From: a virus
Direction: 5' to 3' (one strand)
Length of the DNA stretch: 58,604 nucleotides
Virus record (IMG/VR): IMGVR_UViG_3300047557_000735
Location: 1 to 58,604 of that record
In this document: piece after piece, positions 1,057-29,708 of the stretch
Position numbering within the stretch: position 1 is the stretch's first letter
Layout of the letters: every line of letters starts with the position of its first letter
Position numbers and translations under genes: made by a program
Notes under the pieces: model-generated
Told to the model about the DNA's origin: nothing
The model's database searches: none
What the model saw: the letters and a program-made list of their open reading frames with translations, nothing else

Positions 1057-1583
1057 AACATGCGACGAAGCTGCCGATCAAAATTGATCTGACCCCGTTC
1101 AGGGAAGAGCTTCTTGCGCCCCATCAAAAGTATTACCGTGTTCAGAAGTACGCCCGCAACTTAGACGGCACATCCATTCCTTACACTGAGACGCTAAGGG
1201 TTTTGAATGAAGCAGAATTTGTGGCGCAGCTACCAGAAGCGTTGGTTGCTATCGAGTGGCCCAGCGTGTTCTTGCTTGAACTCCCTGCCTTGGATGCGCA
1301 AGACCCCGTGCTACCTGCACACGTAGACATCAACAAGACCTGCGGCATCAACGTCTATCTGGATACGCATGGTGAAGTAACCAAGTTTTATCGTTGGGGG
1401 CGAGATAGCCGACAGTCTGAGTATGTGGAAGAGTTCTGCGCAGACACTGGGGATGTGTGGCTGATGGATACATCGGTGCCGCACTCAGTGGATATGAAGC
1501 CAAATAAGACGCGCAGGATGCTGACGTTTTCCTTTACCAAGGCCAAGTATGCGGAGGTGCTTTCGTGCTTCGCAACCAGATAA
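1053..1583 (+). CDS. 2-oxoglutarate/Fe(II)-dependent oxygenase 1
   Basis: 176 aa. The C-terminal half carries the iron-binding facial triad of the double-stranded beta-helix oxygenases: H90 and D92 in PAHVDINK, distal H144 in VPHSVD, and an Arg at 154/155 in position to bind the 2-oxoglutarate carboxylate. Enzymes of this superfamily couple 2OG decarboxylation to hydroxylation of a protein, nucleic acid or small molecule; the substrate here cannot be predicted. The start overlaps the upstream stop by ATGA. It is the first of four consecutive, mutually divergent oxygenase genes. Confidence 0.8.
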   Translation: MKHATKLPIKIDLTPFREELLAPHQKYYRVQKYARNLDGTSIPYTETLRVLNEAEFVAQLPEALVAIEWPSVFLLELPALDAQDPVLPAHVDINKTCGINVYLDTHGEVTKFYRWGRDSRQSEYVEEFCADTGDVWLMDTSVPHSVDMKPNKTRRMLTFSFTKAKYAEVLSCFATR

Positions 1584-2125
1584 TCCGGGACATAAAGGCG
1601 GACAACGGCAGAAGACTTACGGTGTACGACAACGTATTGGATTTTGAGTTTCGTAATCGAGTGTACAACTTTGCGCAGAGTTCACTGTTTCAGATAGGTT
1701 GGGCAGATGGATGCATCGTAGAGAATAAGCAGCACAGGTTTTTGCACTCGGTGTATTCGGACGAAGACTTGGCTCGGTTGGGAATATTGGAGAAGTTGGC
1801 AGAAACGCCGGTAGCGCAAGAAGTGGTAGGGTACACGCGGACTAAATGCATACTGAACCTGTCCACCCCAGCGGATGCCAACTTTGTGCATTCGCATCCA
1901 GAAGAAAAGATTTTGCTGTACTACGTCAATCTGGAATGGAAGGACGGATGGCATGGCGAGACGCTGTTCTTTGATGAGTCGTGCAAGGACGTTGTGTACA
2001 CAAGCCCGTATACACCGGGACGCATTATTGCGTTTGATGGGAGAACGCCACACACCATTAGGCCACAGTCGTTCTTGTCGCCGTTTTACAGATTTACCTT
2101 GACGTTGCTTTACACAAAATGTTGA
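1565..2125 (+). CDS. 2OG/Fe(II) oxygenase-like protein 2 (prolyl-4-hydroxylase-type fold, altered triad)
   Basis: 186 aa, GTG start at 1565 overlapping the end of oxygenase 1 by 19 bases. The core region LLYYVNLEWKDGWHGETLFF, followed by PGRIIAFDGRTPHTIRPQS, is typical of phage prolyl-4-hydroxylase-like oxygenases. Distal H163 and a candidate 2OG-binding R176 are present. The proximal motif reads H109-S-H111-P-E113 instead of the usual HxD. The metal site may therefore use a neighbouring acidic residue or be degenerate. Substrate unknown. Family assignment is firm; catalytic competence is uncertain. Confidence 0.75.
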   Translation: MLRNQIIRDIKADNGRRLTVYDNVLDFEFRNRVYNFAQSSLFQIGWADGCIVENKQHRFLHSVYSDEDLARLGILEKLAETPVAQEVVGYTRTKCILNLSTPADANFVHSHPEEKILLYYVNLEWKDGWHGETLFFDESCKDVVYTSPYTPGRIIAFDGRTPHTIRPQSFLSPFYRFTLTLLYTKC

Positions 2126-2604
2126 TCGTGCTGGATGACGTTTTAAGCGAGCCGCACCGACAGGCGGTAGTGGGTTTTTTCTCCCAAAGCGACGAGGCGC
2201 GGGCGATGAAGTGGGAGCCGGGTGGGGTAGACAAGTTACATGGTAATAACGCACCGATGGCGCTTTTGTTGAAACGGGCGGCTGATTATTTTGATTTGTC
2301 CTTGATGGTTGGCAGTGAATACTGGGCGCATTACGGAACCCGACCAGACTGGCATATCGATAAAGACGAGAAGCTGTACCAGATGTCTGGCAATACGGAG
2401 TGCCCGATTTGCAGCATCGTGTATTACGCCGACGTAGATGTGGTGGGCGGTAACTTTGTAACGGAGACAGTATCTGTGCAGCCAGTAACAAACAGGATGA
2501 TTGTGTTTTCCCCCGGCTTGATGCATGGGGTAGAGAAATACACAGGCACTCGGCTGTCGGTGGCTGTTAATCCTTGGGCACGTAAACCTTTGGGGTACGT
2601 ATGA
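2119..2604 (+). CDS. 2OG/Fe(II)-dependent oxygenase 3
   Basis: 161 aa, overlapping oxygenase 2 by 7 bases. The triad is visible: H79 and D81 in DWHIDKDE, H136 in LMHGVE, and R145 as probable 2-oxoglutarate ligand. SIVYYADVDVVGGNF matches the conserved strand pair before the distal histidine. It is short for the superfamily and has little beyond the catalytic barrel. Packed between two other oxygenases in the late operon. The target is unknown; protein side chains of virion or host are the usual suggestion for phage members. Confidence 0.78.
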   Translation: MLIVLDDVLSEPHRQAVVGFFSQSDEARAMKWEPGGVDKLHGNNAPMALLLKRAADYFDLSLMVGSEYWAHYGTRPDWHIDKDEKLYQMSGNTECPICSIVYYADVDVVGGNFVTETVSVQPVTNRMIVFSPGLMHGVEKYTGTRLSVAVNPWARKPLGYV

Positions 2605-3200
2605 TTATTGCAATACCACCACGCATAGCTTATGGACAGGATGAGATTGCCTTCTGGGATGGGTTCCTGACAGAAGAGGAGATTAACTTTCTTCTAGCCC
2701 AGCCTGAGTGGGTGCAGCGCGAGGCAGGTTGTGTTGGCGGTGTTGGCGGTGCAGTAGTTGACCCAAGCATACGGGAGACAAGTGTTGGTTGGATAGGCCC
2801 GAAACCTGAGATGGAAGCTCTATGGGGCAAGCTCTCCCGAGTAGTGGCAGAAGTCAACCGACGCTACTTCCATTTTGATCTGACCGGGTTCCATGAGCCT
2901 ATGCAACTGGGGGTTTACACCGGGGATACAGGTGGGCATTATGGCTGGCATACGGATGCGTCTTCGCAGGATTCTGGGGTGCCGCGCAAGCTATCGATGG
3001 CGCTTCTACTGTCAGATCCGTCCGAGTTTGAGGGTGGTGAGTTTCAAGTAAAGACAACGAGTGACGAGGCCAAGACATTGGAGTCAAAGCGTGGCAGAGC
3101 GTGGTTCTTTCCGTCCTACACACTGCATCGGGTGACCCCTGTGACCAAAGGCGTTCGTCGTTCATTAGTGTTATGGGTCGGCGGCCCACCGTTTAAATAG
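2601..3200 (+). CDS. PKHD-type 2OG/Fe(II) hydroxylase (oxygenase 4)
   Basis: 199 aa, ATGA overlap with oxygenase 3. GWHTDASS (H117, D119), the FEGGEF strand, LHRVTPVTKGVRRSLVLW with H176 and R186/R187 give a complete PKHD hydroxylase pattern, the group that includes bacterial PiuC/YbiX-like proteins and many phage hydroxylases. This is the best preserved of the four oxygenases. It ends eight bases before the gp10-like structural gene, so all four are co-transcribed with tail genes. Substrate unknown. Confidence 0.85.
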   Translation: MIIAIPPRIAYGQDEIAFWDGFLTEEEINFLLAQPEWVQREAGCVGGVGGAVVDPSIRETSVGWIGPKPEMEALWGKLSRVVAEVNRRYFHFDLTGFHEPMQLGVYTGDTGGHYGWHTDASSQDSGVPRKLSMALLLSDPSEFEGGEFQVKTTSDEAKTLESKRGRAWFFPSYTLHRVTPVTKGVRRSLVLWVGGPPFK

Positions 3201-6044: not shown

Positions 6045-8627
6045 ATGAGCCTCCACACACTAGCCAACCACCTTCAGTCTGCTGGTCGCGGCGAGGACAA
6101 AGTACTTGTCCACATGACTCCCGGCGAAGTTAATGGGCTGCAATCCCTTGCAATGGCCCACGGCGGCTCCCTCACGATCAACCCAGAGACCGGTCTGCCT
6201 GAAGCTGGGATCTTAAAGAGTTTGCTGCCGATGATTGCTGGTTTTGCCCTTGGGCCAGCAGGGCTAGGTATGACCGCGATGCAAGCTGGTTTAACCACAG
6301 CCGCGATAGGCGCTGCTTCCACAGGCAGTCTAACAAAAGGTTTGATGGCGGGTCTCGGCGCGTACAGTGGAGCGGGATTGGGTGCTGGTTTGCAATCTAT
6401 GGCTGCTCCAGCTACCGCACCTGCCGTGCCCGGGCTGTCTCCAACAGTAGCAGCCAACCCAAGTGCGTTGGCGGGAACCAGCCCACTGGCAAAAGTGGGC
6501 GCGGAAGACATACTTACTTCGACGGATGATTTAATGGGGATTAAACCCGGATTTTACGATCCGCGTACGTCTTCTGTGTTTGTTAAAAACGCTCCAGTTG
6601 TAGCGGCTCCGCCCGCCGACGCTGCAAAATTCTTGACTACAGACGCAACAAACAAATCAGTTTTGGGCAAGCTGGGCTATACAGGTCCGGGGTCTTTGCC
6701 AACCGCAGGGACTACTCCCGTTGTAACCACAACTCCGCCTGCGGCAATAGAAACCGTGGTGCCAGAACCAGTGGCAATAAAGCCGCCAAGAGCAGATACA
6801 TATTTTGATGCAAGATATGACGCATATAGCCCTGTTAAAGACTCTGGTTTTGGGATCAGAGGTGGTGCCGCGCAAAAAGTTCCAAGCTCCATTACATCGG
6901 ATGTGTACGGCGGCGCTCCTAAATTAGAAACTTCTGCTGCACGAAACGGAGTTCGTACCATAGAAGTAGATGATTTTGTACCAAAAGAAGTTAACGTGAT
7001 GCCCAACGCTTCGGCATCTAAAGGCCCAATTGATTTGACATACGACGGTATCCCATACAAATATGGAGACGGCAGGCAGTCAATTTCTTTTGCTGAAAAC
7101 CACACATTACTGAAAGACCCGACGCGAGGTCCGGTTGATTTAACATACGATGGTATTCCCTACAAATATGGGGATGGTAGGCAGTCAATTGCTTTTGGCG
7201 AGAACCATACTCTGCTGAGAGATCCGCTTGTACCCATAGAATCGAGAACAAGCCCGGTACCAATAGAAACGCGTGTTGCTCCTAAAGAAGTATCACTTGC
7301 AAGGCCAAGACAGGAGTTGTTCCCCGGTGGGGAGTCAATAGCGTCCCCTCGGTCACTTTCCGGTCCGTTTAGAGGGCGCATGGCTGAACTAGGCCGTGGT
7401 GCAGAAGCATCATTCTCCAGCCTTGAAGGGTTAAAGGGATTGTACGCAGCATCTGAAGCTGCTGCTCCTTATGGCATGTACGCTGGTCTTGGTAGTACCG
7501 CATACACCATGTACGATGAGAAGCGGCAACAAATGGAAGATGAGGCTCGGGCAAGAGCAGAGGCCGACAGGGGGCTGATCCGTCCGTATACGTTTGATTA
7601 CGGCGGAGAAAGTGTGTCTGCCCAACCATATTACGGCAGTGCAGAGCGCACCTATTTCCGACCAACTTATACGGAGCGTCCTTCTTATAAAGCGCCGGGG
7701 CCTGAGTATGCTGCCAAGGGTGGTTTGATGGGCTTGGCTGTTGGTGGTCCTGTTGAACAGATGGCCGCGATGAATGCGGTGGGAGCAAACACAGGCTACC
7801 CGATGGCAAGTATTAACACGCCTGTTTACAGCAACCCCATGATGCAGCGTCCTGAAGCCACAAATGTAGTCGCCCCGTCAGCAGATGCAGGAGTTGGTAC
7901 TTATTCTGGCGAAATGCGTTTTGCAAGAGGTGGGGATACCGCAGAACCAGAAAGCTCTGGGTACACGTACTCTTATGATCCAAAAACAAGCCAGTTTACG
8001 CAGACGGGTGGTCCGGGAGCAATGCCATCGGACAAGGATTTAGCTAACGGTCTTGCAGCGCAAGACATGCATCGCCGTTTTGTTGAATCACAAGTTACTG
8101 GTAAGCCATACAACTCTACGCCAAGCTGGTTACAAAATACCGCAACACCCAACGGACCAGTAAGCGGTGGCGTAGCTACCCCCATGATGCAACCCGCAGC
8201 CCCGGCTCAATCGTTTATTCCAAACATCAATGTCCCTGCGTATCAGACACCAGAGCAGCAGCTTGGTCTGGGTGGGTTCTATGACTACATGAATCGTCAG
8301 ATGGGCGGTTACAAAGGATACGCAATGGGCGGTGGTGTTTCACATCTTGGTGACTATTCTGATGGTGGGCGACTATTGAAAGGACCCGGCGATGGAGTTT
8401 CGGATTCTATCCCTGCTTCTATTGGTAACAGGCAACCTGCTCGTCTTGCTGATGGTGAGTTTGTGGTACCCGCACGTATTGTGTCCGAAATCGGAAACGG
8501 TTCAACCGAAGCCGGTGCCCGCAAGCTATACGCGATGATGGACCGTGTGCAGAAAGCCAGACGCAAAACGGTAGGAAAAGATCAAGTAGCGCGTAACACG
8601 AAAGCAGAAAAACTTTTACCCGCATGA
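6045..8627 (+). CDS. Large virion-associated protein, 860 aa, conserved C-terminal domain
   Basis: The N-terminus is Ala/Gly-rich and hydrophobic (residues about 60-125, several possible membrane-active helices), as in internal ejected proteins. Residues about 327-396 hold two adjacent near-identical 35-residue repeats starting GPIDLTYDGIPYKYGDG and GPVDLTYDGIPYKYGDG. The last 90 residues (GPGDGVSDSIP, ARLADGEFVVPA, ARKLYAMMDRV) are a widely conserved C-terminal domain of phage structural proteins. GG-containing motifs (AKGGLMGLAVGG, AMGGGVSHLGDYSDGGR) match those in neighbouring late proteins. Probably an internal or tail-associated virion protein. Confidence 0.7.
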   Translation: MSLHTLANHLQSAGRGEDKVLVHMTPGEVNGLQSLAMAHGGSLTINPETGLPEAGILKSLLPMIAGFALGPAGLGMTAMQAGLTTAAIGAASTGSLTKGLMAGLGAYSGAGLGAGLQSMAAPATAPAVPGLSPTVAANPSALAGTSPLAKVGAEDILTSTDDLMGIKPGFYDPRTSSVFVKNAPVVAAPPADAAKFLTTDATNKSVLGKLGYTGPGSLPTAGTTPVVTTTPPAAIETVVPEPVAIKPPRADTYFDARYDAYSPVKDSGFGIRGGAAQKVPSSITSDVYGGAPKLETSAARNGVRTIEVDDFVPKEVNVMPNASASKGPIDLTYDGIPYKYGDGRQSISFAENHTLLKDPTRGPVDLTYDGIPYKYGDGRQSIAFGENHTLLRDPLVPIESRTSPVPIETRVAPKEVSLARPRQELFPGGESIASPRSLSGPFRGRMAELGRGAEASFSSLEGLKGLYAASEAAAPYGMYAGLGSTAYTMYDEKRQQMEDEARARAEADRGLIRPYTFDYGGESVSAQPYYGSAERTYFRPTYTERPSYKAPGPEYAAKGGLMGLAVGGPVEQMAAMNAVGANTGYPMASINTPVYSNPMMQRPEATNVVAPSADAGVGTYSGEMRFARGGDTAEPESSGYTYSYDPKTSQFTQTGGPGAMPSDKDLANGLAAQDMHRRFVESQVTGKPYNSTPSWLQNTATPNGPVSGGVATPMMQPAAPAQSFIPNINVPAYQTPEQQLGLGGFYDYMNRQMGGYKGYAMGGGVSHLGDYSDGGRLLKGPGDGVSDSIPASIGNRQPARLADGEFVVPARIVSEIGNGSTEAGARKLYAMMDRVQKARRKTVGKDQVARNTKAEKLLPA
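7023..7232 (+). repeat. Tandem duplication of a 105-bp in-frame unit
   Basis: Two consecutive 105-bp copies (7023-7127 and 7128-7232) encode 35-residue units beginning GP(I/V)DLTYDGIPYKYGDG and ending in an ENHTLL(K/R)DP stretch. The protein copies are nearly identical while the DNA differs at many third positions, so the duplication is old and held by selection on the protein. Confidence 0.9.
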
Positions 8628-9085
8628 GTTACACATTTCATCTTGGTAAACATCGGGAATCGTTTGAAGAGCTAGAACCGTTGTACCGCCAGCATTACGA
8701 TGAAATGGTTGAGAGGCTTGCTAAGGATGGCATACCTTACTCACCATATAACCCGAGGTGGAATGAGTACTGGCGTGCAAGTGATGGTGGTTGGTTGCTA
8801 ACGTTTATCTTGAGGCACGAAGGGAAAGCTGTCGGCTGCAGTAATGTTTATCTTACAAACGACATGCACAACGGTGACTTAATTGCACAAGAAGACACCA
8901 TTTATGTTTTGCCAGAACACCGTAATGGAATAGGTAAGAAGTTTGTGCGGGTGATACTGGATGAATTAAAAGAGCGCGGCGTGAAGAGAGTATCCGTTGC
9001 TGCGTTAACAGATTTGAGGGTTGCCAAGCTCTGGAAAAGGATGGGCTTTAAAGAGGCAGCGGTTCAAATGATATATACATTTTGA
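8624..9085 (+). CDS. GNAT-family N-acetyltransferase
   Basis: 153 aa, ATGA overlap with the upstream structural gene. Residues 91-120 contain the GNAT motif A, IYVLPEHRNGIGKKFVRVIL, with the acetyl-CoA pyrophosphate loop R100-N-G-I-G-K105. A downstream AALTDLRVAKLWKRMGFKE segment matches motif B. The enzyme would transfer an acetyl group from acetyl-CoA to an amine; the acceptor is unknown. Sitting between internal virion genes, it may modify a virion or host protein. GNATs in this position are common in environmental podoviruses. Confidence 0.85.
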   Translation: MSYTFHLGKHRESFEELEPLYRQHYDEMVERLAKDGIPYSPYNPRWNEYWRASDGGWLLTFILRHEGKAVGCSNVYLTNDMHNGDLIAQEDTIYVLPEHRNGIGKKFVRVILDELKERGVKRVSVAALTDLRVAKLWKRMGFKEAAVQMIYTF

Positions 9086-9094
9086 GGTAATACT

Positions 9095-10051
9095 ATGTGC
9101 TCATCATCACAACCTTCAGCACCTGAAAAACAAACAGTTACCCAAACTTCGATACCGGATTATGCCAAGCCGTATGTCGAAAAGATGTTGGGCAAAACAG
9201 AGGCGCTGGGCAACGCTCCTTACCAAGCATATCAAGGCGAACGGATTGCCGGGTTTACCCCCATGCAGCAACAGTCGCAGCAGGCAGCGGCAAACTTGGG
9301 GCCAGCCCAACAGTTGGGTGTTGGCACACAGATGGCAGGTCTTGCCGGTCTGGGCGCGATGGGTGCAGGTCAGCAGTACGCACAACAAGCCACCAACCCT
9401 TACTCCATGCAAGCGTACATGTCGCCTTACGTAGAAAACGCACTTGCTCCCCAGATGCGAGAAGCGACAAGACAGTCCGCTATGCTAGGTCAGCAGAACC
9501 AAGCACAGGCTGTACAACAGGGTGCGTTTGGTGGCTCACGTTCAGCCATTGTAGAAGCGGAGCGTCAGCGCAATCTGCAAAACCAGCTTGGCGATATCTA
9601 CGGCAGAGGTATGCAGTCAGCCTTTGAGCAGGCCCGTCAGGCACAGCAATTTGGATCTACGTTGGGGCTGCAAGGTTATCAAACCGCAGGTCAAATGGCG
9701 GGTACGTTGGGTCAGTTGGGGCAGACACAGTTTGGTCAGCAGCAGCAAGCGCTTCAAACGCAGGCTCAGATGGGTGCGCAGCAGCAGGCACTGGAGCAAC
9801 AACGTCTAGCCCAGCAGTATTCCGACTTTGCTTCTCAGCGCCAACATCCGTATCAACAGTTGGCATTTATGTCGGACATGCTGCGTGGTTTGCCACTTGC
9901 GCAATACTCACAGACAATGTATCAACAACCAATGTCACCGCTGGGAACAATAGCAGGCGCAGGGTTGACTTATATGGGTGGACAGAAGGCTGGCTATTTT
10001 GCAGATGGCGGCGTTACCGGGCTGGCTCTGTATAACATGAGCAAGGAATAA
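9095..10051 (+). CDS. Gln/Ala-rich internal virion protein
   Basis: 318 aa. Residues about 15-60 (DYAKPYVEKMLG, then YQGERIAGFTPMQQQ) and a Gln-rich helical middle with MREATRQSAMLGQQNQAQA and AFGGSRSAIVEAE are familiar from virion proteins of environmental podoviruses encoded next to giant internal proteins. It ends with the motif YFADGGVTGLALYN, one of the GG-V motifs that recur in late proteins here. Likely part of an ejected internal protein complex. Start ATG 9095 follows TGAGGT. Confidence 0.65.
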   Translation: MCSSSQPSAPEKQTVTQTSIPDYAKPYVEKMLGKTEALGNAPYQAYQGERIAGFTPMQQQSQQAAANLGPAQQLGVGTQMAGLAGLGAMGAGQQYAQQATNPYSMQAYMSPYVENALAPQMREATRQSAMLGQQNQAQAVQQGAFGGSRSAIVEAERQRNLQNQLGDIYGRGMQSAFEQARQAQQFGSTLGLQGYQTAGQMAGTLGQLGQTQFGQQQQALQTQAQMGAQQQALEQQRLAQQYSDFASQRQHPYQQLAFMSDMLRGLPLAQYSQTMYQQPMSPLGTIAGAGLTYMGGQKAGYFADGGVTGLALYNMSKE

Positions 10052-12315: not shown

Positions 12316-12326
12316 CAGGAGTTAAT

Positions 12327-15300
12327 ATGGCTGCACCAGCACCATGGGAAATGGATTGGTCCAAGAAGAAGGATGAAGATCGTCCGCCTTGGGAGCGCAA
12401 TTATGGCGCACCACCAGTTCCAACAAAGGCTCCTACCGCCCCCACTACGCTGCGTGACATAGGTGTGTCGGGTGCATCCGGATTTGTTGGTGCCACGAAA
12501 GCACTGACAGATGTGTTTGGTGCGGACAATGCTGCCAGCCAAGCTTTGGGCCAAGCTTCTACCAGCCTGCAAGAGATGTACACGCCTGAGCGTCGGCGCG
12601 AGATAGAGTACTACCAAGCAAAACAGCAAGAAGCTGCCAAGCGTGGCGACATTACTGGTGAGGTTGGTGCTGCGTTTGAGGGGATCAAAGCTGCGCCATT
12701 GCAGGGCACTGTGCAGGCGATTGGCTCACTGGTTCCTAACTTGGCTACGCTGCTCATCCCCGGTGCTGGTGAGGCTCGTGCGCTTCAGCTATCACGCGGC
12801 GCTATCAATACGGCTATCGGTATCATGCAAGGTACTGGTGCTGTCAAAGGTGCTATATACGAAGGCGTCAAGCAGGAGTTGATACAGAACGGTATGGACG
12901 AAGCTTCTGCTGCTCGTAAAGCGGAAGAAGCCCAACGGTATCTGGGGAAGAATGCTGACCAGATCTTGGCTGGTGCTGTAATTGGTTACGGCGCTGGTAG
13001 GCTTGGTGCAGAACAATTCCTCACCCCCGGCTCTCGTGCTGCCACGCGCAAGTTGGCAACGATTGGCACAGAGATGGGCACAGAGGCCATACAGGGCGGG
13101 CAAGAGCAACTGGCACAGAACATAGCCCTACAACGTCAGGGATTCAACGTTCCTACATTCCAAGGTGTGGCTGGTGCTGCAACACAGGAAGGTATTCTGG
13201 GTGCGCTGGGTGCTGGTCCAGTATCGCTTATCAGTGGTCGTCCGTCGCAGAAGGATGTGCCGGGGGCTCAGCCAGTAACTGATGCACAGGTGCCTTTACT
13301 ACTTGAAGGTAAGGGTGCGTTCGTGCCGGTGGGTCTGCCGGATGGTTCTGTAGCTATGACTCGCCAAGATCTGGCTAAGTACGAAGAAGAAAAGTTTAAA
13401 CAGAAGTATGCGCCGCAAGATATCGAGGGAAGAACTACAGTAGCTGCGCCGCCAGCCACACGCGCTATGCCAACTGAGTCTGGCCTAAGCTACGGCACGG
13501 CTACACAAGAGATAGAGTTGCTCAAGCGTCAACCACGCACGCCTGAGACAGACGCTCGCATCAAAGAACTCCAGCAGTACAAGATGGAGACTTTGACGGA
13601 TCAAATTAACGCATCAAAGCTTCCAGTCAGTCCTGAGTTAAAAGCGCTTCGTGAACAAATGGAACGTGGTGATATGACCTATGAGGGTCAGCAGCGCGTT
13701 ATAGACCAGATGCTTGCGGAGTTCTACTCGAGTCGCAAGGGATTTAAGGGCATAGAAAAAGAAGGCGTACCAAAAACTGAGGAAGAGCAAGAGCTTGCCG
13801 ACCTTAATGGATATGCCAGAGATTTATCAAAGGAATACAAATCTGTTACTGCAAAGAAGCTCAACACCGAACTTAAGCGGGCGCTGGCTGGCAAGCTGTT
13901 CCCCGAAGAGGTAGTCAGCGAGATTGGCGTTGAAAGAGAATATAAGTACTTGGCTGCACCCAAGGGTGTAAGGGGCAAGTTAATTGCCGACTTGGTACAC
14001 GACGGTATTCTGGATGAGTTTCTGCCTCCCAACATGCGTGCAGAGTCAGCTGGATTTGATGGGCAAGAGTCAGAGGAGTACATCAAAGATCTGCTGAGGA
14101 CAGAGCAATTCCGTCCATATGACGCACAAGTCCAAGCTCGGATACTGGGCGACAAATTGGGTGAGATTGATGCTCGCATTAAAGAGCTAACAGAATTACC
14201 TAAGCGCATGGCTGGCTTGTCACCAGAAGAGGTGCAAGCAGAGACAGATCGCCTTGCCCGTGAAGCTGGCTATCTGGGGCAGCCACGCGGTGAAGAAGTA
14301 TTGCAGCCTATAGAAGAGCCTGCCGCACAGCCGGTGGAGGATGAGTACTACCCGGACATGGGTCAGGCAGGTCTTGAGGCTGAGACTACGCCTGCGGTGG
14401 AAGAGTTTAAGGCTGCGGATCAAGCGTTCCAGCTTTCGCTCCAGCAGTACGAGGCGTTGACCCAGCAACTCAACAGTGTCCCACAAGGTGTACCCGGGAG
14501 AGAGGCTCTGGAGCAGCAGGTGGTGGAGGCTGAGCAGGTTGCTGTAGATAACCAGCAGAACCGTCAGGCTGCGTTTAATGCACTTAATGCTCGCGAGATC
14601 CAGCAGCTTCAGATGCCTGCGATGGGTGCTGCAACTCAGGAACAGGCTGCCCCAACTTTTGGTGTCCCTGCTGCGCAACAGGCTGCTCCCGGTGCTCCTC
14701 AACAACTGGGTGTACCACAGCGTGGTACCGCACTATCTGCGGCAGAGACTGACATCATAGAAGGCCAAGCGCGGGAAGTACGTGAGCCCGGCGCACCTGC
14801 TGGTATTGATGGACGTAAGCCCGGCACTGCTGTGTCCGCCAGAGAGACCGACATCATCGAAGGTCAGGCACGCGTCATCGATGAGGAGACTATTGCTCCT
14901 GTTGTGGCGCAACTTTCAGCACCAGAACAGCAGACACTGGCAGAGCATTATGGTGAGGAGGTAAACAGTCCCGGGTTCCTAGCCAAGGTACGTGAAGATA
15001 TTGTTAACTTCACTACCAAGGGTGCCCAGTCTGTTGCCGCGGCTATCCGTAATATCATCCGCAAGTTGCAGGCAGCGATACTGTCTGCTGCTGTCATCCT
15101 AAATCCCAACTACATCGGCCCCGGCTATCAGGTAGCTATCCCGCAGAACGTCACCACGGTTGAGCAGGTGCTGGCAAAGGTGCCAGAATCTGTGCGGGCA
15201 AGGATGTCCCCCGGTGCGCAGCAAGCGTATGCCAACATCATGCCTGCAATTCAGGCGGAGCTTCAGAAGAGCAACAAGCTATTTGTCCTGACCGACAAGC

Positions 15301-18300
15301 CCAACGCTCGGGTGTTTGTATTTGACTCCAACGGACAGCCCATCCTTGATAAGAAGGTGCTGCTGGGCTTGCAGACTGGGGACTACTACAAGGGTGATAC
15401 AGAAATCAAAGCCAATCGGTTTACGCCTGCTGGCCTGTTCACCATGGGGTTGCGTGATGCAAAGCGTGGCATTACTGAGACGGGCGGGAACGAAACCAAA
15501 ACCGCTGGAGATTATGACTTCGGTAAGGTGTTTGTGCTGGAGAAGGCAGCGCCTGATGGATCGTATTCCATCACCCTGTTCCATTCTGTCTACACCAAAA
15601 TGTCGGACGCACAAGCCCGGCAGAGAGCGCTGGCTAAGGACAGCGCAGAGGACTCACGCTATTCGTTCGGCTGCATCAACGTAGACAAAGAAACGTACAA
15701 GTTCCTGCTGGATAACTATGAGCAGCAGATGGATGGCGCAAAGTTGTTTATCGTGCCTGACAATCCAGACGCAACCATGGACTTTGTCCGTGGTAAAGCT
15801 GTGACTGCCGGTGACCTTCGCCGCCAAGCTGCTCCAGAGGTAACAAAAGAAGTTACCAAGACTGTACCCGGCACACCGTCTACTACGACTCCACGTACGG
15901 AGATGGCTGCCCGCAAGGAAGAGGATCAGGAAACAAGGGAGCGCGGCAAGTACATGCAGGCTAAGCCCGGTGAGAAGGGCATGTCCAAGGCTGCTGTGGA
16001 CAAGGCTGTGGATGGCATCAAATCTACGTGGAAGAACGCGCCTGACATCGAGGTAGTCCAGTCTTTAAGCGGGCTACCGCAAGAGCTACAGGATCAGGCT
16101 AAAGAAGACAAGGTCAACCCACGCGGGGTCTACGATCCAAATACGAAGAAGGTGTGGCTGGTTGCGGACAATATTCCTAATGACGCACAGGCTGCTATCA
16201 CCCTAGCACACGAAGCACTGGGTCACTTCGGCCTGCGTGTGGTGCTGGGTGCCAACTTCAAGCCGATGATGAACCAGATCTATGAGGGCAACAAGAATGT
16301 GCGTGACCGCGCAGATGCCTACATGGAAGAAGGTGTTGACAGAGAGACGGCTGTCGAGGAAGTGCTGTCTGAGATGGCGCAGGAGGTGTATGACACCCGC
16401 GTACCAGAGAGCAAGCTGAAGCCTACTCGCACCGCTTTACAAAAGGTAATGAATGCAGTCCGTCAGTTCTTGGCTCGTCTTGGTGTGCCCATTAAGACCA
16501 TTGATGATGCTGCTGTGCTGGCCCTTATTGCCAACGCCCGTCGTTCTGTGGTTCGCGGCGAAGGTGTTGCTGGTGAGATGGCTGGTGGCAAACCTTTGTA
16601 CAGCGCCAAGGAACGTATCGAGCGTGTAGCTCAGCGTATGAGCAGCAAGCGCCCTGAGATGGAGCGTGATGCGTTTAGCGACGTTGATGAGGGATTAGTT
16701 AACCGCCTGAAGGATGTCTTCTTCCCTGAGAACAAGACCATTGTTGACCGTATCAATGGCATGCGGGATAACTTCTGGAAGAAGCTTGCTCAAGGTGTGG
16801 CTGACCAGTACCGCTCCATCAAGGACTATACGGAAGAAGGCTACATGCTAGCCCGTATGTCCAAGACTATTGACGGTGCTCTCGAAGGTCTGCTGTTTAA
16901 CGGACAGGTAGCACTGACTGACGGCGCACTAGACATCAAGCAGAACACCAAGGGACTTGTACAAGTCATGGAGCCTGTGGGTAAAGAGGTTGACCGCTTC
17001 CAGATTTGGATGGCGCTCAATCGTGATGCCCAGCTTGTACGTCAGGGAAAGATCCCGTCTGTCGATCCCAAGCTTGTAGAGCGTGCCGGTGAGTTGGCTA
17101 ACGGCAAGATTGGTGGCAAATCTCGACTGGAAGTTTATGAGCAGGTTCGTAAAGATCTGAACGCGCTCAATCGTTCGGTGCTGGATATCGCAAGAAAGCA
17201 GGGGCTGATTGATGAAGAAGCCTACCAAGTGTTTGCCAACGACATCAACTACATCCCGTTCTACAAGGCTATGGAGGATGGTGATATACAAGGTGCTGCC
17301 ACCGCTTCCGGTCTGGCGCGTCAGGAGTTTTCGAAACAACTGAAGGGTGGAGAGAAGCCATTCGCTGACCTGATGGAAAATACCCTGCGCAACTGGAGCC
17401 ACATCCTGTCTGCGTCCATGAAGAACAAAGCGGCGAACGTCACGCTTGATGCTGCTATGGATATGGGTGCTGCCTACCCGAACTTGAAGGTTGGCTTCGA
17501 GTGGCGTGATGGCAAGGTCTACTCCGCCAAGTCGGGCGAGATGGTAGGCGACGGCAAGCTGAAGGCTGAATACACCACGCAGAAGGCTGGCATGGTTAAG
17601 ACCATGATCAACGGTAAGCCTGCGTACTTCGAGGTGGTAGACCCGCTGCTGCTGGATTCTATTAGCTCTATCGGCTACATGGGTCCGAAGTCTAAGTTCC
17701 TTGATGTGGCTAAAGACTTCAAGAACCTGCTCCAGTTTGGTGTCACCCTGTCTCCAGCGTTCAAGGTACGCAACCTGTTCCGTGATTCCATCTCAGCTAT
17801 GGCGGTGTCTGACCTCAAGCTCAGCCCGGTATCCAACGTGATCCGTGGATGGAATGCATCACGGGGAGATAATCCTGCACACATCTCAGCACTGGCTGGT
17901 GGTGCGATCTTTAACTTTGGTTCCTACTATGAGGGTGACCAGAGCCGTTTGATCAAGCGTCTGCTGAAGCAGGGCGTGAACCCAGACTCGATTCTGGATA
18001 CAGATGAGAAGATCAAGAAGGGTCTTACTGCTGCGTGGCGCAAGTATCAGGAGTGGGGCAACAAGTCTGAATCTGCTAACCGTATGGCGCTGTATCAGCA
18101 GATGCGTGACCGCGGCATGTCCCACCTCGAGGCATCGTTCTACGCACGGGATCTACTGGACTTCTCCATGCAAGGATCGTGGCCTGCCTTCCGTCTGGTA
18201 GCACAGGTAGTGCCGTTCCTGAATGCCCGCGTGCAGGGTCTGTACAAGCTAGGCCGGGATGGCGTGATACCTACCAGCCGGGTGATCTACAACACGGTGA

Positions 18301-19313
18301 CAGGCAAGCCCGTAGAGTTGACTGACAAGCAAAAGGCTCAGCAGTTCGGTACGGTGACAAGCGCAGTAGTGCTGGCATCGATGGCCTTGTACTTGATGTT
18401 CAAAGATGACGATGAGTTCCAGAAGCGTGAGGCATGGGACCGGGATAATTTCTGGTGGTTCAAGCTGCCCGGCATGGATGAGGCTCTGCGTGTACCTAAG
18501 CCATTCGAGATTGGCGCATTTGGTACCATGTCGGAGCGGGTGCTCGAGCAGATCGTTGATCAGGGCGCAGAGGGCAAGCAGTTTGAAGAAAGCTTCCGTC
18601 GCATGCTGGGAGATACGTTTGCTTTGAACCCAGTGCCACAGGTATTCAAGCCGCTGCTGGATCTGTACTCCAACAAGGATAGCTTTACCGGTGCGCCTAT
18701 TGAGACGGCTGGCATGGAGCGTCTATCCAAGCAGGAGCGGGCATCTGATACCACCAGCCCGTTGGCAAAGGCACTGGGCGGCGTCTCCAATATCTTTGCA
18801 TCTGTTGCTGGGGAGAAGACGGAACTGTCGCCTGCTCAAATTGACTATGCCATCAAGGCTTACCTTGGCTGGCTGGGTGGCACCATCACAGCGTCATCGC
18901 ACTATGCGGTCATGCCGTTCTCTAAGAGCGCATACCCTGACCATAACTGGACAGAGACTATGTCGCTGGGCTTTGTGAAGTCACTGCCCGCCACGCAGAG
19001 CCGGTACGTCACGGAGTTCTACCAGAACAGTAAGCAGATCTCTCAGGCTTATGCAGACATGCGCCACTATGCAGAGCTTGGTCAAGCAGAGAAGGTGGAT
19101 GAGATTCTTGCTGAGAAGGGTAATGAGATTGCGCTTGCAAAGTCTTACGACAAGGCTGCCAAGGATATGGCTAAGGTTCGTCAGGCCATCTCGTTTATTC
19201 GTAACGATGAGAACATGTCCGGGTCTGAGAAGAAAGAAGAGATTGACCGCCTGAAACTGCTGATCGATGAGATCGCCAAGCAGATGGAGACCGTGCGCAA
19301 AGAGCTAAAGTGA
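12327..19313 (+). CDS. Giant polyvalent virion protein: L,D-transpeptidase-like, HExxH and LPD38-like regions
   Basis: 2328 aa, about 12 % of the window. Residues 40-320 are Ala/Gly-rich and partly hydrophobic. Residues about 984-1150 resemble a YkuD-type L,D-transpeptidase: H1086 and the S-F-G-C1116-I-N active-site block, a variant of the usual SHGCxN. Such enzymes cross-link or cut peptidoglycan stems through the cysteine. Residues 1290-1305 contain AHEALGH (H1295, E1296, H1299), a zinc-peptidase HExxH motif. Residues about 1800-2150 (PAFKVRNLFRD, VVPFLNARVQGLYKLGR, PKPFEIGAFG) look like the large-polyvalent-protein domain LPD38. The C-terminal 130 residues are helical. Probably packaged and ejected with the DNA to breach the cell wall. 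It converges on the Ref-like gene with a 9-base overlap. Confidence 0.75.
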   Translation: MAAPAPWEMDWSKKKDEDRPPWERNYGAPPVPTKAPTAPTTLRDIGVSGASGFVGATKALTDVFGADNAASQALGQASTSLQEMYTPERRREIEYYQAKQQEAAKRGDITGEVGAAFEGIKAAPLQGTVQAIGSLVPNLATLLIPGAGEARALQLSRGAINTAIGIMQGTGAVKGAIYEGVKQELIQNGMDEASAARKAEEAQRYLGKNADQILAGAVIGYGAGRLGAEQFLTPGSRAATRKLATIGTEMGTEAIQGGQEQLAQNIALQRQGFNVPTFQGVAGAATQEGILGALGAGPVSLISGRPSQKDVPGAQPVTDAQVPLLLEGKGAFVPVGLPDGSVAMTRQDLAKYEEEKFKQKYAPQDIEGRTTVAAPPATRAMPTESGLSYGTATQEIELLKRQPRTPETDARIKELQQYKMETLTDQINASKLPVSPELKALREQMERGDMTYEGQQRVIDQMLAEFYSSRKGFKGIEKEGVPKTEEEQELADLNGYARDLSKEYKSVTAKKLNTELKRALAGKLFPEEVVSEIGVEREYKYLAAPKGVRGKLIADLVHDGILDEFLPPNMRAESAGFDGQESEEYIKDLLRTEQFRPYDAQVQARILGDKLGEIDARIKELTELPKRMAGLSPEEVQAETDRLAREAGYLGQPRGEEVLQPIEEPAAQPVEDEYYPDMGQAGLEAETTPAVEEFKAADQAFQLSLQQYEALTQQLNSVPQGVPGREALEQQVVEAEQVAVDNQQNRQAAFNALNAREIQQLQMPAMGAATQEQAAPTFGVPAAQQAAPGAPQQLGVPQRGTALSAAETDIIEGQAREVREPGAPAGIDGRKPGTAVSARETDIIEGQARVIDEETIAPVVAQLSAPEQQTLAEHYGEEVNSPGFLAKVREDIVNFTTKGAQSVAAAIRNIIRKLQAAILSAAVILNPNYIGPGYQVAIPQNVTTVEQVLAKVPESVRARMSPGAQQAYANIMPAIQAELQKSNKLFVLTDKPNARVFVFDSNGQPILDKKVLLGLQTGDYYKGDTEIKANRFTPAGLFTMGLRDAKRGITETGGNETKTAGDYDFGKVFVLEKAAPDGSYSITLFHSVYTKMSDAQARQRALAKDSAEDSRYSFGCINVDKETYKFLLDNYEQQMDGAKLFIVPDNPDATMDFVRGKAVTAGDLRRQAAPEVTKEVTKTVPGTPSTTTPRTEMAARKEEDQETRERGKYMQAKPGEKGMSKAAVDKAVDGIKSTWKNAPDIEVVQSLSGLPQELQDQAKEDKVNPRGVYDPNTKKVWLVADNIPNDAQAAITLAHEALGHFGLRVVLGANFKPMMNQIYEGNKNVRDRADAYMEEGVDRETAVEEVLSEMAQEVYDTRVPESKLKPTRTALQKVMNAVRQFLARLGVPIKTIDDAAVLALIANARRSVVRGEGVAGEMAGGKPLYSAKERIERVAQRMSSKRPEMERDAFSDVDEGLVNRLKDVFFPENKTIVDRINGMRDNFWKKLAQGVADQYRSIKDYTEEGYMLARMSKTIDGALEGLLFNGQVALTDGALDIKQNTKGLVQVMEPVGKEVDRFQIWMALNRDAQLVRQGKIPSVDPKLVERAGELANGKIGGKSRLEVYEQVRKDLNALNRSVLDIARKQGLIDEEAYQVFANDINYIPFYKAMEDGDIQGAATASGLARQEFSKQLKGGEKPFADLMENTLRNWSHILSASMKNKAANVTLDAAMDMGAAYPNLKVGFEWRDGKVYSAKSGEMVGDGKLKAEYTTQKAGMVKTMINGKPAYFEVVDPLLLDSISSIGYMGPKSKFLDVAKDFKNLLQFGVTLSPAFKVRNLFRDSISAMAVSDLKLSPVSNVIRGWNASRGDNPAHISALAGGAIFNFGSYYEGDQSRLIKRLLKQGVNPDSILDTDEKIKKGLTAAWRKYQEWGNKSESANRMALYQQMRDRGMSHLEASFYARDLLDFSMQGSWPAFRLVAQVVPFLNARVQGLYKLGRDGVIPTSRVIYNTVTGKPVELTDKQKAQQFGTVTSAVVLASMALYLMFKDDDEFQKREAWDRDNFWWFKLPGMDEALRVPKPFEIGAFGTMSERVLEQIVDQGAEGKQFEESFRRMLGDTFALNPVPQVFKPLLDLYSNKDSFTGAPIETAGMERLSKQERASDTTSPLAKALGGVSNIFASVAGEKTELSPAQIDYAIKAYLGWLGGTITASSHYAVMPFSKSAYPDHNWTETMSLGFVKSLPATQSRYVTEFYQNSKQISQAYADMRHYAELGQAEKVDEILAEKGNEIALAKSYDKAAKDMAKVRQAISFIRNDENMSGSEKKEEIDRLKLLIDEIAKQMETVRKELK

Positions 19314-26281: not shown

Positions 26282-27226
26282 TTATTTAAGATTAACAAAT
26301 GGCACAGATCCATTTGCCATGGTTGCGGGAAGTTTTCCATCCCAACGTTCAATAGCTTTTAGCTGTACATATGCTGCACCGCCTTGGCTATTAATTGCTT
26401 GCGTTTCAATTTGAATTGCCTTTGCTCGTCCTTCGGCGCGGGCAACAGCCTGCTTTGCTTCTACTTCGATACGTGCTAGGTCTTGCTCTGCTTTTAGCTT
26501 GCTTTGGGTTGCAATCACTTTTGCTTCAATAGCCTTCTGGTAGTCGGCGCTAAAGGCAAAGTTAACCAGACTAATGTCATTCACACCCACGTTGTACTTG
26601 GCAAGTTTGGTAGCCAGTTCTTCGCGGATTTGCTGGGACACTACGTCACGCTTAACGATCAGGTCTTCGCTGGTATAGCGAGCAACGACCGCTTTGAATG
26701 ACTCGTTAATGCCCGGCAGGATTACCTTGTCCTCAAGGTTCAGACCGAACTCTTTGTAGATGTGTCCTACCTTAGCTCCGTCCAGACGGTAGTTAACTAC
26801 GATATCGGTATGTACCTGCTGAAGATCTTTGGTGCCTGCGCTGGCGTTGCCCAACTTGGTAGTTACCAGACGGACATCTACTTCTCGGATGTATGAAAGT
26901 GGGTTAACAAAGTGTGCGCCCTCTGTCAGCGTCTGCTGATTTACCGTACCAAACGTCACCTGAATGCCTATATGTCCCGCTGGAACTACGGTAAACGATT
27001 CAGACAATGTGTAAATTACAAAAACTACTGGTGCCGCAATAAAAAGAATGTTGTTGAACTGAGGCTTCTCAGGCAACGGATCTGGCTGCAAAGATTTGTA
27101 GGTCGCATTACGGCGCTCCACTTCGTTGCAACGTCTTTGCCAAGTTGACAGCGAGTCGTGCCGCGCATACAACAATCCCAAGGTTGGGATGGTTAAAATT
27201 AAGAACGATAAAATTATGTAGAACAT
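26282..27226 (-). CDS. SPFH/band-7 (prohibitin-like) membrane protein
   Basis: 314 aa. Two hydrophobic segments (residues 2-20 and about 59-76) anchor it. Residues about 78-250 form an SPFH domain: VVPAGHIGIQVTFGTVN, GAHFVNPLSYIREVDVRLVTT, then the long helical region AKVIATQSKLKAEQDLARIEVEAKQAVARAEGRA (two stretches) and a C-terminal LKAIERWDGKLPATM typical of prohibitin/HflC-like proteins. Host homologues (HflK/HflC) form membrane cages and regulate FtsH protease. A phage copy may modulate host proteolysis or superinfection. Early operon member between the Cas4-like and secreted-peptide genes. Confidence 0.88.
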   Translation of the reverse strand: MFYIILSFLILTIPTLGLLYARHDSLSTWQRRCNEVERRNATYKSLQPDPLPEKPQFNNILFIAAPVVFVIYTLSESFTVVPAGHIGIQVTFGTVNQQTLTEGAHFVNPLSYIREVDVRLVTTKLGNASAGTKDLQQVHTDIVVNYRLDGAKVGHIYKEFGLNLEDKVILPGINESFKAVVARYTSEDLIVKRDVVSQQIREELATKLAKYNVGVNDISLVNFAFSADYQKAIEAKVIATQSKLKAEQDLARIEVEAKQAVARAEGRAKAIQIETQAINSQGGAAYVQLKAIERWDGKLPATMANGSVPFVNLK

Positions 27227-29633: not shown

Positions 29634-29708
29634 TGCGGGATGGCGCAGCGGTAGCGCGGTGGGCTCATATTCCATAGGTCGTCGGTTCGATTCCGGCTCC
29701 CGCTACCA
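29634..29708 (+). tRNA. tRNA with CAU anticodon (Met/fMet/Ile2-type), CCA encoded
   Basis: A canonical 75-nt cloverleaf can be drawn by eye. Acceptor TGCGGGA/TCCCGCT has a T-T mismatch at position 1-72. D stem GCGC/GCGC has the loop AGCGGTA. Anticodon stem GTGGG/TCCAT closes loop CTCATAT (anticodon CAT). Variable loop AGGTC, T stem GTCGG/CCGGC, loop TTCGATT and an encoded ACCA end complete it. A 1-72 mismatch is an initiator hallmark, but the C11-G24 pair and the G31-T39 wobble are not. CAU could also be a lysidine-modified Ile2 tRNA. Confidence 0.85.

What the first reader, a model, noticed from the sequence alone, without database searches (positions are those of the whole stretch)
12327..19313. 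Virion polyprotein combining L,D-transpeptidase-like and HExxH motifs
Internal virion proteins often carry lysozyme or amidase domains; a YkuD-like L,D-transpeptidase block (H1086 ... SFGC1116IN) followed by AHEALGH is uncommon. The spacing between the catalytic His and Cys is longer than in bacterial enzymes, and Phe replaces the usual His of SHGC. It may seal or remodel peptidoglycan at the ejection channel rather than cut it.
Basis: partly seen in the sequence, partly recalled or inferred. Interest (0 to 1): 0.6.

Follow-up and report, generated by a model that had tools for sequence, protein, structure and literature searches.

The report
Phage injection protein with cell-wall transpeptidase
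A giant protein that this uncultured phage probably packs in its particle and injects at infection carries a cell-wall-editing enzyme domain (L,D-transpeptidase) where related phages carry a wall-cutting enzyme, followed by a protease-like domain, and the same pair recurs in dozens of related uncultured phages.

Summary
The 2328-aa ORF at 12327-19313 is real. It is a phage "polyvalent" protein: C-terminal LPD38, last gene of a conserved ejection-protein block, in the slot of a giant protein that in Burkholderia phage JC1 was found in virions by mass spectrometry.

The isolated domain passes Pfam's YkuD cut-off, 19 of 21 relatives match, and every PDB fold hit with E <= 0.001 is an L,D-transpeptidase. 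His1086, Ser1113, Gly1115, Cys1116 and Asn1118 are invariant in 53 phage sequences.

Two corrections. HEALGH is HExxxH, not HExxH; this zincin-like form was already described in polyvalent proteins. The long His-Cys spacing and SFGC are not phage oddities: a widespread proteobacterial Ldt subfamily has spacing 29-30 and S[FY]GC[IV]N.

New: YkuD followed by a zincin motif recurs in 59 of 61 3'-complete relatives (1 expected by shuffling), behind a conserved signal-peptide-like segment. YkuD is not named in the main text of the 2017 polyvalent-protein survey.

Most likely it edits peptidoglycan stems at the entry site. Whether it cross-links, trims, exchanges or cuts is unresolved. Activity, virion location, topology and autocleavage are inferred.

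The parts
12327..19313 (+). Gene of the 2328-aa polyvalent / ejection protein
   Evidence: Single open frame; phrog_18222 8.8e-168 and LPD38
12317..12321 (+). Ribosome-binding-site-like AGGAG, 5 nt before the ATG
   Evidence: Sequence
15045..15107 (+). Signal-peptide-like hydrophobic segment, residues 907-927 (IRNIIRKLQAAILSAAVILNP)
   Evidence: Present before YkuD in all 70 relatives tested; its hydropathy maximum is reached by a median of 2.5% of windows elsewhere in the same proteins; membrane role inferred
15285..15716 (+). YkuD L,D-transpeptidase domain, residues 987-1130
   Evidence: PF03734; Foldseek against PDB
15582..15584 (+). Catalytic-position His1086
   Evidence: Invariant in 53 phage sequences and in the bacterial relatives aligned
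15663..15680 (+). SFGCIN motif, residues 1113-1118, with catalytic-position Cys1116
   Evidence: S, G, C and N invariant in 53 phage sequences
15975..16556 (+). Zincin-like MPTase domain, about residues 1217-1410
   Evidence: Conserved in cultured phages; modelled as a mainly helical domain, pLDDT mostly about 90
16209..16226 (+). HEALGH (HExxxH), residues 1295-1300
   Evidence: H, E, H invariant in 12 aligned sequences
16356..16373 (+). EEVLSE, residues 1344-1349; E1345 is the candidate third zinc ligand
   Evidence: E1345 invariant in 12 aligned sequences
18408..18920 (+). LPD38 domain, about residues 2028-2196
   Evidence: PF18857 9.7e-36 and 128.8 bits
10054..12315 (+). 753-aa protein between the ejection homologue and the giant gene (position of T7 gp15)
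   Evidence: Position; homologues upstream of the giant gene in the close relatives printed; no family match
9095..10051 (+). DNA-ejection-protein homologue
   Evidence: phrog_4287 1.9e-20
8624..9085 (+). GNAT acetyltransferase, same relative position as in phages HTVC034P and JC1
   Evidence: PF00583

Best explanation
A virion-carried polyvalent ejection protein, in the gene position of T7 gp16, whose recognised enzymatic part is YkuD followed by a zincin. During entry the protein is ejected into the host envelope; the hydrophobic segment before YkuD engages the inner membrane and YkuD faces the periplasm. Cys1116, activated by His1086, is acylated by a peptidoglycan stem at mDAP3, releasing D-Ala4, and passes the stem to an amino acceptor (3-3 cross-link or exchange) or to water (trimming), so that the wall at the channel is edited at its peptides rather than cut in its glycan strands. 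The neighbouring HExxxH zincin most likely processes the polypeptide itself. Shown: domains, conserved residues, tandem, gene context. Inferred: virion presence, topology, activity, substrate, autocleavage.
For: YkuD by Pfam and by fold. Motif residues invariant over 53 sequences and dN about 0.08 against dS 2-3 in the closest pairs. Same subfamily as bacterial Ldts with signal-peptide-like starts. Signal-like segment before YkuD in 70 of 70. Ejection-gene synteny and virion detection of the syntenic LPD38 protein of JC1, which carries an LT-like domain. YkuD-zincin tandem in 59 of 61. Separate lysozyme-type genes in relatives.
Against: No biochemical or virion data for this protein or any YkuD-bearing relative. 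Fold TM-scores are low (0.2-0.5), so the substrate may differ. The zincin fold is not confirmed by fold search. Only 34 of 61 relatives have a recognised LPD38.
Confidence: 0.6

Rival explanations
1. The YkuD domain cuts: as an L,D-endopeptidase or carboxypeptidase it loosens stems or cross-links so that the channel can pass, doing the job of the transglycosylase of T7 gp16 or JC1 gp69.
For: The syntenic JC1 gp69 has an LT-like domain and T7 gp16 a transglycosylase used at entry; no glycosidase was found in the window protein. The Ldt fold can give LD-carboxypeptidase activity in a delivered effector (Tlde1a).
Against: E. coli phage-plasmid pSTEC648_2 has the YkuD protein next to a separate GH104 gene, so YkuD need not be the cutter. 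Motif residues are those of annotated transpeptidases.
Confidence: 0.25
2. YkuD does not act on peptidoglycan: it is an acyl-transfer or self-processing Cys domain of the polyprotein, for example joining the protein to something, with the zincin as partner.
For: A peptidase-like domain follows on the same chain in nearly all relatives; Ldts can join proteins to mDAP.
Against: All motif residues are shared with secreted bacterial Ldts of the same subfamily, and the upstream hydrophobic segment fits periplasmic exposure.
Confidence: 0.08
3. The protein is not in the virion but is made late and acts in the producing cell, for example in lysis or wall modification against superinfection.
For: No virion proteome exists for these phages; no endolysin of five families was found in the window.
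Against: Ejection-gene synteny and the virion-detected JC1 gp69; three relatives have their own lysozyme-type genes.
Confidence: 0.07

Closest known systems
Phage polyvalent proteins with LPD38 and zincin MPTase (Iyer et al. 2017, PMC5512222)
   Same: LPD38, HEXXXH MPTase, giant multidomain chain among late genes
   Different: YkuD or transpeptidase is not mentioned in the main text; wall-active domains listed there are lysozyme, SpoIID-like transglycosylase and DD-peptidase
Burkholderia phage JC1 gp69 / Bcep22-like DarB-like giant protein (PMC9144972)
   Same: LPD38 at the C-terminus, downstream of an acetyltransferase and virion-associated proteins
   Different: Carries an LT-like transglycosylase, helicase-like and other domains, no YkuD listed; detected in virions
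T7 gp16 ejection protein (PMC8954989)
   Same: Last and largest of three ejection genes; carries a peptidoglycan-active domain
   Different: Transglycosylase, 1318 aa; homology to the window protein not shown here
Proteobacterial L,D-transpeptidases with long His-Cys spacing (Comamonas, Variovorax, Sphingomonas and others)
   Same: DxR[IY]S[FYL]GC[IV]N with His 29-30 before Cys; 26-31% identity
   Different: Mostly stand-alone proteins of 220-450 aa (open-frame lengths), some with signal-peptide-like starts; no characterised member found
E. coli phage-plasmid pSTEC648_2 2318-aa protein (CP061838.1)
   Same: YkuD and LPD38 on one chain, both over the Pfam cut-offs
   Different: No HExxH or HExxxH found; GH104 gene alongside
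Tlde1a, a T6SS effector with an Ldt fold (PMC9638812)
   Same: Ldt fold delivered into another cell's periplasm by an injection machine
   Different: Stand-alone toxin; no sequence comparison made here

Membership tests
YkuD / L,D-transpeptidase (PF03734) | Sequence match over the curated cut-off | tested here: met
   24.6 and 25.3 bits against 23.4 for the domain and in the genome search; below the cut-off (19.4) in the full-length scan
YkuD / L,D-transpeptidase (PF03734) | His and S-x-G-C-x-[RN] motif | tested here: met
   Invariant in 53 phage sequences
YkuD / L,D-transpeptidase (PF03734) | YkuD fold | tested here: met
   All PDB hits with E <= 0.001 are Ldts for two models, though with low TM-scores
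YkuD / L,D-transpeptidase (PF03734) | Catalytic Cys and His adjacent in space | not testable with these tools
   No coordinates returned
YkuD / L,D-transpeptidase (PF03734) | Transfer of peptidoglycan stems | not testable with these tools
   Needs assay
LD1,3-transpeptidase (LdtGo) family | LdtGo-type active-site spacing, His245-Cys264 (19 apart) | tested here: not met
   Spacing is 30 here; no direct sequence comparison made
Polyvalent-protein zincin MPTase, HEXXXH form | HEXXXH plus a Glu on a following helix | tested here: met
   H1295, E1296, H1300 and E1345 invariant in 12 sequences; E1345 lies in predicted helix 405-421 of the model
Polyvalent-protein zincin MPTase, HEXXXH form | Zincin fold | tested here: inconclusive
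   Best non-Ldt zincin match, lethal factor, only E 0.45; PDB profile search gave nothing
Phage polyvalent protein (LPD38) | LPD38 and two or more unlike domains on one chain | tested here: met
Phage polyvalent protein (LPD38) | Encoded among virion genes | tested here: met
T7 gp16-type ejection protein | Last of the ejection genes by synteny | tested here: met
T7 gp16-type ejection protein | Packaged and ejected | not testable with these tools
   Only by analogy with JC1 gp69

The most novel reading that the evidence does not exclude
A virion-delivered transpeptidase that makes bonds at entry: it re-cross-links peptidoglycan around the ejection channel, or covalently anchors the channel to mDAP as Ldts do with Braun lipoprotein, and is released from the injected polyprotein by the adjacent zincin. 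The phage would seal or rivet the wall instead of only cutting it.
Probability: 0.22. Interest if true: 0.8.

Novelty: new variant of a known kind. Interest (0 to 1): 0.52.

Why it matters
The entry-phase wall enzymes of phages that I know of are hydrolases or lyases. A conserved, intact Ldt domain in this slot, on one polypeptide in front of a peptidase-like domain, makes it testable whether phages also edit or mend the wall they cross. If active, it might be a carbapenem-sensitive step of entry, since Ldts are known carbapenem targets, and a new source of wall-editing enzymes. The family is easily missed: in whole-record scans with the Pfam YkuD model only 2 of 11 relatives' records rang, and 1 passed the cut-off.

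Tried and rejected
HMMER profile of A1 against the PDB gave only spurious NHL-repeat hits to one short strand. hhalign against LdtD, LdtB and DpaA aligned only 19 columns around SxGC, so the fold search was used. NCBIfam found nothing informative. A genome-contig scan with the phage domain alone found no relative; the bacterial-type alignment A6 found 410. The LdtGo LD1,3 family was considered and set aside for its spacing of 19. Independent capture of YkuD in the E. coli plasmid protein and in two further viral loci: FastTree put them outside the phage clade, but the better model put all three on the phage side at support 84 with long-branch warnings, so this is unresolved. Chance origin of the tandem was rejected by shuffling. 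YkuD as the phage's endolysin is unlikely: three relatives and pSTEC648_2 have separate lysozyme-type genes. E. coli chromosomes and plasmids of the RefSeq collection hold no close copy of the plasmid stretch tested. A resemblance of HEALGH...EEVLSE to the DPP III (M49) motifs was thought of from memory and not tested.

Full report
WHAT IS THERE. The ORF at 12327-19313 (+) is a single open frame of 2328 codons starting at an ATG with AGGAG 5 nt upstream. The window is a virus record of 58,604 bases. The protein has LPD38 at residues 2028-2196 (E 9.7e-36) and matches phrog_18222 at 8.8e-168 over its C-terminal part. [quoted passage not shown]

THE YkuD DOMAIN. PF03734 matches residues 987-1130: E 0.0017 in the full-length scan (19.4 bits, below the cut-off of 23.4), 24.6 bits for the domain alone, 25.3 bits in a genome search. 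Nineteen of 21 relatives match on their own, best 1.2e-7. AlphaFold2 with 21 relatives gave pLDDT 73.9 and pTM 0.79; all 48 PDB matches with E <= 0.001 are L,D-transpeptidases or their family, LdtMt2 first. A second model of residues 935-1420 with 57 sequences reached mean pLDDT 86.4, with most blocks of the YkuD part above 90; all 36 PDB matches with E <= 0.001 are again Ldts. TM-scores are low (0.2-0.5 by target length), so the fold is YkuD with sizeable changes. The tools give no coordinates, so the His-Cys distance was not measured.

CATALYTIC RESIDUES. In 53 phage sequences, about 45-88% identical to the window's, H1086, S1087, R1098, R1111, S1113, G1115, C1116 and N1118 never vary; position 1114 is F in 51 and Y in 2. 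The closest pairs show dN about 0.08 against dS 2-3. This is an enzyme-like domain under selection, not a relic.

THE SPACING IS NOT A PHAGE ODDITY. His-Cys is 30 in the window and in all 30 domain sequences examined. E. coli LdtB, LdtD and DpaA have 16, 19 and 18. But tblastn against plasmids found Comamonas, Variovorax and Sphingomonas proteins, two of them annotated L,D-transpeptidase, and a scan of genome contigs with an alignment of these found 410 relatives, the best 80 from Alpha-, Beta-, Gamma- and Deltaproteobacteria. Among 66 fetched relatives with a readable motif (64 bacterial, 2 viral) spacing is 29 in 64 and 30 in 2, and the motif is S[YF]GC[IV]N. The Comamonas and Sphingomonas members begin with signal-peptide-like sequences. 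In the shared alignment the invariant residues include H1086, R1098, D1109, R1111, S1113, G1115, C1116 and N1118. I found no characterised member; this was not an exhaustive literature check.

THE SECOND MOTIF. AHEALGH is HExxxH. Aligned with relatives including Vibrio phage D274, Achromobacter phage CF418P1, Aeromonas phage phiARM81mr and Dolichospermum phage Dfl-JY45, the two His, the Glu and E1345 are invariant. PMC5512222 describes this variant ('HEXXXH') among polyvalent MPTases and proposes self-processing. No PDB fold match of this part is significant; the first non-Ldt zincin is a lethal-factor entry at E 0.45. The zincin assignment therefore rests on motif, conservation and the paper.

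THE TANDEM. In 61 YkuD-bearing phage ORFs with a complete 3' end, 59 have HExxH or HExxxH 100-750 aa after the Cys; 200 shuffles gave 1.0 on average and 5 at most. Related sequences are counted singly, so this shows that the motif is real, not how often the pair arose. Among 58 distinct proteins 38 have HExxH and 18 HExxxH first, in many flavours. The modules also travel apart: L113-L116 share the window's MPTase (56-62% identical) without YkuD, and L208 combines YkuD with LPD39. LPD38 was found in 34 of the 61 with a small home-made profile, so the C-terminal part varies or was missed.

SIGNAL-LIKE SEGMENT. Upstream of the YkuD core every one of 70 relatives has a basic-then-hydrophobic stretch (window residues 907-927, IRNIIRKLQAAILSAAVILNP); its hydropathy maximum is reached by a median of 2.5% of windows elsewhere in the same proteins. 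The E. coli plasmid homologue has a similar stretch. Membrane insertion is inferred.

GENE CONTEXT. Upstream lie a virion structural protein (phrog_3287), an 860-aa protein, a GNAT acetyltransferase, a DNA-ejection-protein homologue (phrog_4287) and a 753-aa protein, then this gene. Pelagibacter phage HTVC034P has tail tubular A and B, acetyltransferase, internal virion protein B-like, a 580-aa protein, then its LPD38 gene. In Burkholderia podovirus JC1 the order is acetyltransferase, a virion-associated 332-aa protein, further genes, a 510-aa virion-associated protein, then gp69 (4515 aa, LPD38 and an LT-like domain), detected in CsCl-purified virions with 51 unique peptides. T7 gp16 carries its transglycosylase for entry. 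In relatives of the window the ejection homologue was found in 42 of 66 loci, upstream of the giant gene in those printed. Cultured LPD38 proteins scanned here carry helicase, methyltransferase, pyrophosphatase or no recognised middle domain, none with YkuD.

NOT AN ENDOLYSIN. Three relatives' records have stand-alone phage-lysozyme or GH108 genes. None of five wall-hydrolase families was found in the window, which may be incomplete. E. coli phage-plasmid pSTEC648_2 carries a 2318-aa LPD38 + YkuD protein (both above cut-off) next to a GH104 gene and near a lysozyme and a holin.

KNOWN OR NEW. The main text of PMC5512222 does not contain 'YkuD' or 'transpeptidase'. My library searches found no paper on an Ldt domain in ejection or polyvalent proteins; the library lacks most subscription journals. 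The closest structures among viral proteins are largely unannotated or 'large polyvalent protein' entries. Stand-alone YkuD-like genes exist in some cultured phages, for example Xanthomonas phage XacN1 (annotated L,D-transpeptidase) and, as hypothetical proteins, Stenotrophomonas phages DLP_5, DLP_3 and Summit. So: known class of protein, known MPTase variant, known enzyme family; the combination and its recurrence appear unreported.

MECHANISM. I commit to peptidoglycan-stem editing at the entry site by Cys-His acyl transfer, with the zincin acting on the polyprotein. Shown: domains, residues, tandem, context. Inferred: virion presence, topology, activity, cleavage. Seal, trim, exchange or cut cannot be told from sequence.

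Noticed in passing
window 1565-3200 (+): Three consecutive genes match 2OG-Fe(II) oxygenases (PF13640), one weakly, just before the structural genes.
   Followed up: partly
window 8624-9085 (+): GNAT acetyltransferase at the head of the ejection block; an acetyltransferase sits in the same place in Pelagibacter phage HTVC034P and Burkholderia phage JC1. Its role there is unexplained.
   Followed up: partly
L119 761-7717 (CP061838.1 40327-47283): E. coli phage-plasmid pSTEC648_2 encodes a 2318-aa LPD38 + YkuD protein annotated as hypothetical, next to a GH104 gene.
   Followed up: partly
L113-L116: The window's HExxxH MPTase (56-62% identical) occurs in other giant phage proteins without YkuD.
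   Followed up: partly
window 1-58604: None of SLT, phage lysozyme, amidase_2, M15_4 or GH108 was found, although relatives have a lysozyme or GH108 gene; the endolysin may be divergent or outside the record.
   Followed up: partly
window 29634-29708 (+): tRNA-Met (cat) gene.
   Followed up: no
window 26282-27226 (-): Reads by eye like a prohibitin/SPFH-type membrane protein; not tested.
   Followed up: no
L121 1564-1911, L122 2333-2677: Large Xanthomonas phages carry stand-alone YkuD-like proteins of about 115 aa with a similarly long His-Cys spacing.
   Followed up: partly
L127-L206: A large proteobacterial Ldt subfamily with His-Cys spacing of 29-30, often missed by the Pfam YkuD model; no characterised member found.
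   Followed up: partly
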